Assembly: GCA_913030825.1 (NCBI GenBank)
Contig: CAJWCU010000014.1
Location: 1-64,000 of the forward strand
DNA length: 64,000 nucleotides
Source: an uncultured Rhodospirillaceae bacterium
GTDB lineage: Bacteria; Pseudomonadota; Alphaproteobacteria; Rhodospirillales; Casp-alpha2
Direction: 5' to 3'
Each line of letters opens with the position of its first letter. The stretch's first letter is position 1. Positions 58,105 to 58,476 of the stretch are shown piece by piece. Below the pieces are notes generated by a model. That model ran no database searches. It was not told the DNA's origin and was given only the letters and a program-made list of their open reading frames with translations. The translations under genes and the position numbers were made by a program.

Positions 58105-58476
58105 GTGTTCGAAGTCGATGAAGATGCCGTGTCCGAGGACGCGGTAGAGGAAAAGCAGGATGATTCCCTGTTTTGCGCGCGCTGCGGCCATCTGGTGACC
58201 CGCGCCGGATGGGCCGCCCGGCCCGAAGGCGGGCATGAACGGGTCTGCGCCAACCCGGCGGGTCGGATGTTTCAGGTGGTCGGCTTTCTGGAGGCTCCCG
58301 GCGCCGCCGACCGGGGGGCGCCAACCGAGGAATTCACCTGGTTTCCGGGTTATGCCTGGAACTTTGCCGTCTGCCGGGGCTGCGGGGACCATCTGGGTTG
58401 GCGCTACACCGGCGACCAGGACCCGCCTGTGTTCTGGGGCCTGATTAAGGACCGACTGACCAGTCAGCCGAAATAG
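58105..58476 (+). CDS. CULT domain (cereblon-like, thalidomide-binding fold) protein
   Basis: CARC...HERVCANPAGRMFQVVGF...EEFTWFPGYAWNFAVCRGCGDHLGWRYTGDQDPPVFWGLIKDRL: two CxxC pairs plus WFPGYxW and HLGWxY aromatic-cage pattern; GTG start with GGAGAGG. Confidence 0.88.
   Translation: MFEVDEDAVSEDAVEEKQDDSLFCARCGHLVTRAGWAARPEGGHERVCANPAGRMFQVVGFLEAPGAADRGAPTEEFTWFPGYAWNFAVCRGCGDHLGWRYTGDQDPPVFWGLIKDRLTSQPK

What the first reader, a model, noticed from the sequence alone, without database searches (positions are those of the whole stretch)
58105..58476. Bacterial CULT-domain (cereblon-like) protein: candidate thalidomide/aromatic-cage binder
The 123-aa product shows CARC...CRGC zinc-ligand pairs and the FTWFPGYAW...HLGWRY...FWGLIKDRL signature. 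From memory this closely resembles the single-domain CULT protein of Magnetospirillum gryphiswaldense, the bacterial model for cereblon ligand binding. The three cage tryptophans appear conserved. The native ligand of bacterial CULT proteins is not well established, so genomic context is informative.
Basis: partly seen in the sequence, partly recalled or inferred. Interest (0 to 1): 0.85.

Follow-up and report, generated by a model that had tools for sequence, protein, structure and literature searches.

The report
Bacterial cereblon-like CULT protein (single domain)
A marine bacterium carries a small free-standing version of the pocket through which thalidomide binds human cereblon; it is a sound new member of a known family, and its gene neighbourhood does not reveal what it naturally binds.

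Summary
Window 58105-58476 (+) encodes a 123-aa single-domain CULT protein, about 46% identical to MsCI4 of Magnetospirillum gryphiswaldense. The PDB sequence match has E = 1.5e-28, and the AlphaFold model superposes on MsCI4 with TM up to 0.95. The zinc ligands (C24, C27, C90, C93) and the cage (W79, W85, W99, plus Y101) align with those of MsCI4. The gene is under purifying selection (dN/dS about 0.12-0.22) and is the only copy in the genome. NCBI already names close relatives "cereblon family protein", so this is a new member of a known kind.

It does not. In 80 loci from several phyla the neighbours change with lineage, and CULT is often the last gene of an unrelated operon. In its own family CULT sits between gatCAB and a D-aminoacylase-like amidohydrolase, often with a SelW gene. 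Three sister genomes kept both neighbours but lost CULT, two of them with a clear deletion scar. So no neighbour depends on it. The most likely role, inferred, is a stand-alone cytosolic binder of cyclic imides (C-terminal aspartimide or glutarimide). Uracil/uridine binding is the main rival.

The parts
58105..58476 (+). CULT (cereblon-like) protein, 123 aa, GTG start; zinc ligands C24, C27, C90, C93; cage W79, W85, W99 and Y101; NPAG hairpin at 50-53; E76 and F77 at the ligand-contact positions of MsCI4
58489..58785 (+). SelW/SelT/SelH (Rdx) family protein, 98 aa, CxxC form (CTGC), 13 bp after CULT; context only, also present at the matching locus of a genome that lacks CULT
   Evidence: Rdx 4.8e-30; Atu0228 2fa8 6.5e-37
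58898..60571 (+). D-aminoacylase-like amidohydrolase (amidohydrolase superfamily), 557 aa; context only, retained next to gatB in genomes that lack CULT
60606..61511 (+). NAD-binding dehydrogenase (phosphogluconate-dehydrogenase-like); context only
52267..55507 (+). gatC-gatA-gatB (tRNA amidotransferase); usual upstream neighbour of CULT in this family; context only

Best explanation
SHOWN HERE: the gene encodes a free-standing CULT domain of the MsCI4 type, with a predicted beta-tent fold, a CxxC...CxxC zinc site and an aromatic cage of three tryptophans plus Y101. It has no second domain and no obvious signal peptide, and it is selectively maintained. ESTABLISHED FOR THE CLOSE HOMOLOGUE MsCI4: this cage binds glutarimide rings (thalidomide class) and uracil/uridine; glutarimide is held by hydrogen bonds from the backbone of residues 77 and 79 and from Tyr101, and the binding site folds when ligand arrives. 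INFERRED: this protein binds the same ring class. Its most likely natural targets are cyclic imides formed when Asn or Gln residues cyclise, that is C-terminal aspartimide or glutarimide ends, or the equivalent small imides, which is the ligand class shown for human cereblon. With no ubiquitin system and no fixed partner gene, it would act alone in the cytosol as a reader or sequestering protein that hands damaged ends to general housekeeping machinery. Membership of the CULT family is about 0.98 likely. The confidence given is for the whole statement, including the natural ligand.
For: PDB sequence match to MsCI4 E = 1.5e-28 over residues 22-122. AlphaFold model pLDDT 88.9; Foldseek top hits all MsCI4, E about 5e-12, TM by target up to 0.95, rmsd 0.8-2.5 A; cereblon next. 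C24, C27, N50, W79, W85, C90, C93, G98, W99 and F110 invariant in 49 homologues; W79, W85, N50, C90 and C93 in 103 of 103, W99 in 102 of 103, residue 101 always Tyr or Phe. The contact residues E76, F77, W79 and Y101 are those of the glutarimide site of MsCI4 (PMC8900816). Human CRBN recognises C-terminal aspartimide and glutarimide (PMC12117711). dN/dS 0.12-0.22. No recurrent partner: among 80 non-redundant neighbouring families no Pfam domain occurs more than twice.
Against: The natural ligand was not tested here or, in the papers read, established for any bacterial CULT. MsCI4 also binds uridine with thalidomide-like affinity, and its authors could not assign a biological context to that (PMC4449219). 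The absence of a conserved partner or protease gives no positive support for a damage-handling role. The gene is repeatedly lost, so it is not essential.
Confidence: 0.4

Rival explanations
1. The protein is a uracil/uridine sensor or buffer connected with pyrimidine metabolism.
For: MsCI4 binds uracil, uridine and deoxyuridine in the cage with low-micromolar affinity for uridine (PMC4287342; PMC4449219). In one genus of the family (g7; L036, L039, L040) CULT lies directly behind pyrB-pyrC-plsY on the same strand, 17 bp after plsY in two of the three. The window has pyrB-pyrC-plsY about 10 kb away (45267-48196, - strand).
Against: The pyr link is confined to one genus. One g7 genome keeps pyrC-plsY-SelW but lacks CULT (L069). 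No pyr linkage recurred in the wide survey.
Confidence: 0.2
2. CULT works with the neighbouring D-aminoacylase-like amidohydrolase (58898-60571) and SelW in breaking down a cyclic imide or N-acyl-D-amino acid: CULT senses or presents the imide and the amidohydrolase opens it.
For: The amidohydrolase superfamily includes hydantoinases; PDB relatives are D-aminoacylase and N-acyl-D-glutamate deacylase. CULT and this enzyme stay close to each other in six genera (g1, g3, g4, g5, g7, g8), also where the upstream genes differ.
Against: Sister genomes keep gatB next to the amidohydrolase with CULT removed: L064, L070, L057, and L071. In several genera opposite-strand genes lie between CULT and the enzyme, so they are not one transcript there. 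CULT outside this family lacks the enzyme at the high-identity level and has other neighbours. CULT and enzyme identities correlate (r = 0.82), but equally with GatB (r = 0.85), as expected for vertical co-inheritance.
Confidence: 0.1
3. The protein is a Yippee/Mis18-like or MsrB-like beta-tent protein without imide binding.
For: The fold is shared; Pfam Yippee-Mis18 matches weakly.
Against: Below the Pfam cut-off; the full tri-Trp cage plus Tyr101 is present; the best structure and sequence hits are all cereblon/MsCI4.
Confidence: 0.02

Closest known systems
MsCI4 / MGR_0879 of Magnetospirillum gryphiswaldense (PDB 4v2y and others)
   Same: Single-domain bacterial CULT; about 46% identity; aligned zinc ligands and cage with the same residue numbers (W79, W85, W99, Y101); E76 and F77 also the same; same predicted fold
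   Different: N-terminal about 20 residues differ and are acidic; position 59 is Val, not Trp; in the Magnetospirillum loci sampled (L093, L108) CULT follows a parvulin-type PPIase gene, not gatCAB, and has no SelW/amidohydrolase beside it
Thalidomide-binding domain of human cereblon (CRBN)
   Same: CULT fold, zinc site and three-tryptophan cage
   Different: No LON domain, no DDB1-binding region, no E3 ligase context; Tyr101 in place of Phe402 and Phe77 in place of His378
Yippee / Mis18
   Same: Beta-tent fold with CxxC pairs
   Different: Score below the Pfam cut-off; CULT has the tri-Trp cage

Membership tests
CULT domain family (bacterial single-domain group) | Significant sequence similarity to the reference CULT protein MsCI4 | tested here: met
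   E = 1.5e-28 over residues 22-122; about 46% identity
CULT domain family (bacterial single-domain group) | Two CxxC motifs at the zinc site | tested here: met
   C24/C27 and C90/C93, invariant in 49 homologues; metal content not tested
CULT domain family (bacterial single-domain group) | Three cage tryptophans W79, W85, W99 plus aromatic residue 101 | tested here: met
   W79, W85, W99, Y101
[quoted passage not shown]
   N50-P51-A52-G53
CULT domain family (bacterial single-domain group) | Beta-tent fold | tested here: met
   AlphaFold pLDDT 88.9; Foldseek TM by target up to 0.95 to MsCI4
CULT domain family (bacterial single-domain group) | Protein consists of the CULT domain alone | tested here: met
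   123 aa; no further domain
CULT domain family (bacterial single-domain group) | Binds glutarimide/thalidomide and uridine | not testable with these tools
   Needs a binding assay; contact residues conserved
Cereblon (CRBN, LON-CULT E3 substrate receptor) | LON domain fused upstream of CULT | tested here: not met
   No LON domain in the 123-aa protein; longer open frames in relatives resolved to single-domain CULT ORFs
Yippee/Mis18 | Passes the Pfam PF03226 gathering score | tested here: not met
   19.6 bits against 26.6

The most novel reading that the evidence does not exclude
Free-standing bacterial CULT proteins are the ancestral, ubiquitin-independent readers of C-terminal cyclic-imide damage: they bind aspartimide or glutarimide ends in the cytosol without a dedicated partner, and cereblon later wired the same pocket to an E3 ligase.
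Probability: 0.25. Interest if true: 0.75.

Novelty: new member of a known kind. Interest (0 to 1): 0.32.

Why it matters
The thalidomide pocket is central to targeted protein degradation, yet what bacterial CULT proteins bind in nature is open. This locus adds a well-conserved Tyr101-type member. More usefully, the surrounding comparison shows that gene neighbourhood is a poor guide to the ligand, which argues for direct biochemistry. It also supplies natural material for such tests: matched sister genomes with and without the gene at the same site, and natural variants of the pocket (Y83H in congeners, W99C in L095).

Tried and rejected
(1) Amidohydrolase as functional partner: attractive from the window alone and kept in six genera, but rejected as a dependency because sister genomes keep gatB next to the amidohydrolase without CULT. 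(2) gatCAB as functional partner (Asn/Gln chemistry): adjacency is real in many genera of the family, but gatCAB is kept where CULT is lost, and other lineages place CULT behind unrelated operons. (3) A protease or other universal partner: none recurs among 25 operonic and 80 adjacent non-redundant families; only the 25 most frequent Pfam families of each scan were displayed. (4) Fusions: longer open frames in G085, G100 and G118 resolved to single-domain CULT ORFs. (5) Promoter/terminator scan around the gene: no sigma-70-like promoter; the terminator-like hits on the + strand lie inside SelW and are not informative.

Full report
Observation. The reading frame 58105-58476 (+) is present as described, 123 codons from GTG to TAG. 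Its product matches MsCI4, the bacterial CULT model protein, with E = 1.5e-28 and about 46% identity, then cereblon itself with E about 5e-15 to 3e-13. NCBI names close relatives "cereblon family protein", so the family assignment is not new.

Anatomy. In an alignment of 49 homologues the invariant residues are C24, C27, N50, W79, F80, G82, W85, C90, C93, H96, L97, G98, W99 and F110. Over 103 CULT proteins from this survey (some genomes counted twice), W79, W85, N50, C90 and C93 never change, W99 changes once, and position 101 is always Tyr or Phe. The contig loci were found with a pattern containing WF[PK]GY, so W79 and Y83 are partly ascertained there; the loci from the genome search were not. 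The residues that hold glutarimide in MsCI4 (backbone of Phe77 and Trp79, Tyr101, the three Trp; PMC8900816) are all the same here. The AlphaFold model (pLDDT 88.9) matches MsCI4 structures at TM up to 0.95 by target length.

Selection and distribution. dN/dS against six congeners is 0.12-0.22. It is the only copy in the genome. CULT occurs in 27 of 49 genomes of the family and in 12 of its 14 genera, and in 28 of 81 well-covered genomes sampled from the order. Pairwise CULT identities track those of GatB (r = 0.85) and of the amidohydrolase (r = 0.82) from the same loci, as expected for vertical inheritance.

Context in the family. The common arrangement is gatC-gatA-gatB, an optional GNAT acetyltransferase, CULT, then either SelW or one or two convergent response-regulator genes, then a D-aminoacylase-like amidohydrolase and usually a dehydrogenase. 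In the window's genus a sensor kinase on the other strand sits between GNAT and CULT. In genus g7 the block lies behind pyrB-pyrC-plsY.

Empty sites. G034 (L064), G023 (L070) and G028 (L057) have gatB followed directly by the amidohydrolase, with no CULT between. The intergenic stretch still carries, on the opposite strand, roughly the first 22-26 codons of the convergent response regulator. That remnant is clear in L057 (E = 4e-4) and L070 (best E = 0.003) and weak but at the same place in L064 (best E about 0.1). The simplest reading is that CULT was lost there by deletions that also cut the neighbouring gene, while gatB and the amidohydrolase stayed. L071 (G031) also has gatB beside the amidohydrolase without CULT, and G035 (L069) keeps plsY-SelW-amidohydrolase without CULT. 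These cases show that none of the family-level neighbours needs CULT.

Context beyond the family. In 80 loci whose record titles include Rhodospirillales, Desulfobacterota-type, gammaproteobacterial, Spirochaetes, Acidobacteria and Aminicenantes genomes, a same-strand gene lies within 60 bp upstream in 35 and downstream in only 6; the next gene is convergent in 51. CULT is thus often the last gene of an operon. The upstream genes differ by lineage: der/EngA with BamB, parvulin PPIase, CobA-HemD, FIST, SDR, cation ATPase, N-acetylmuramoyl-alanine amidase. No Pfam domain occurs more than twice among 80 non-redundant neighbours. Neighbour calling used a home-made ORF caller and is approximate. 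No CULT fusion was found.

Mechanism. What is shown is the pocket. That it binds cyclic imides is inferred from near-identity of the contact residues to MsCI4. That the natural ligand is a C-terminal aspartimide or glutarimide is inferred from human cereblon (PMC12117711) and from the fact that the same pocket is kept in distant bacteria. Uridine is the main alternative; its binding to MsCI4 is known but its biological context was left open by the authors (PMC4449219). The papers read do not report a bacterial function.

Verdict. Observation confirmed; interpretation supported; new member of a known kind. The added result is negative and useful: neighbourhood does not reveal the ligand, and the gene is dispensable and repeatedly lost.

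Noticed in passing
L064, L070, L057: CULT-free sister loci where gatB is joined to the amidohydrolase; a 22-26 codon 5' remnant of the convergent response-regulator gene marks the deletion (clear in L057 and L070, weak in L064).
   Followed up: yes
family genomes: Within genera that have both kinds, CULT-bearing genomes tend to be larger after completeness correction (probability 0.74 that a CULT+ genome is the larger; within-genus permutation p = 0.014). Consistent with loss during genome reduction.
   Followed up: partly
L032-L035 (congeners of the window), L049: Natural variant with His in place of Tyr83 (e.g. WFAGHAW), the position equivalent to human Tyr384, whose Ala mutant is part of a thalidomide-binding-deficient cereblon (PMC4449219).
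   Followed up: no
L095 / L047 (Caenispirillum bisanense MAG): Natural W99C variant: HIGCRF in place of HLGWRY, loss of one cage tryptophan.
   Followed up: no
window 56050-57900 (-): Fusion of an NMT1/THI5-like solute-binding domain to a histidine kinase, conserved in the genus between GNAT and CULT.
   Followed up: no
L036, L039, L040 (genus g7): CULT directly behind pyrB-pyrC-plsY, of interest because MsCI4 binds uridine.
   Followed up: partly
L099 (labelled Stygiobacter sp.): Contig with the same gene order as loci L093 (Magnetospirillum) and L098 (including the PPIase before CULT): probably a misbinned contig.
   Followed up: no
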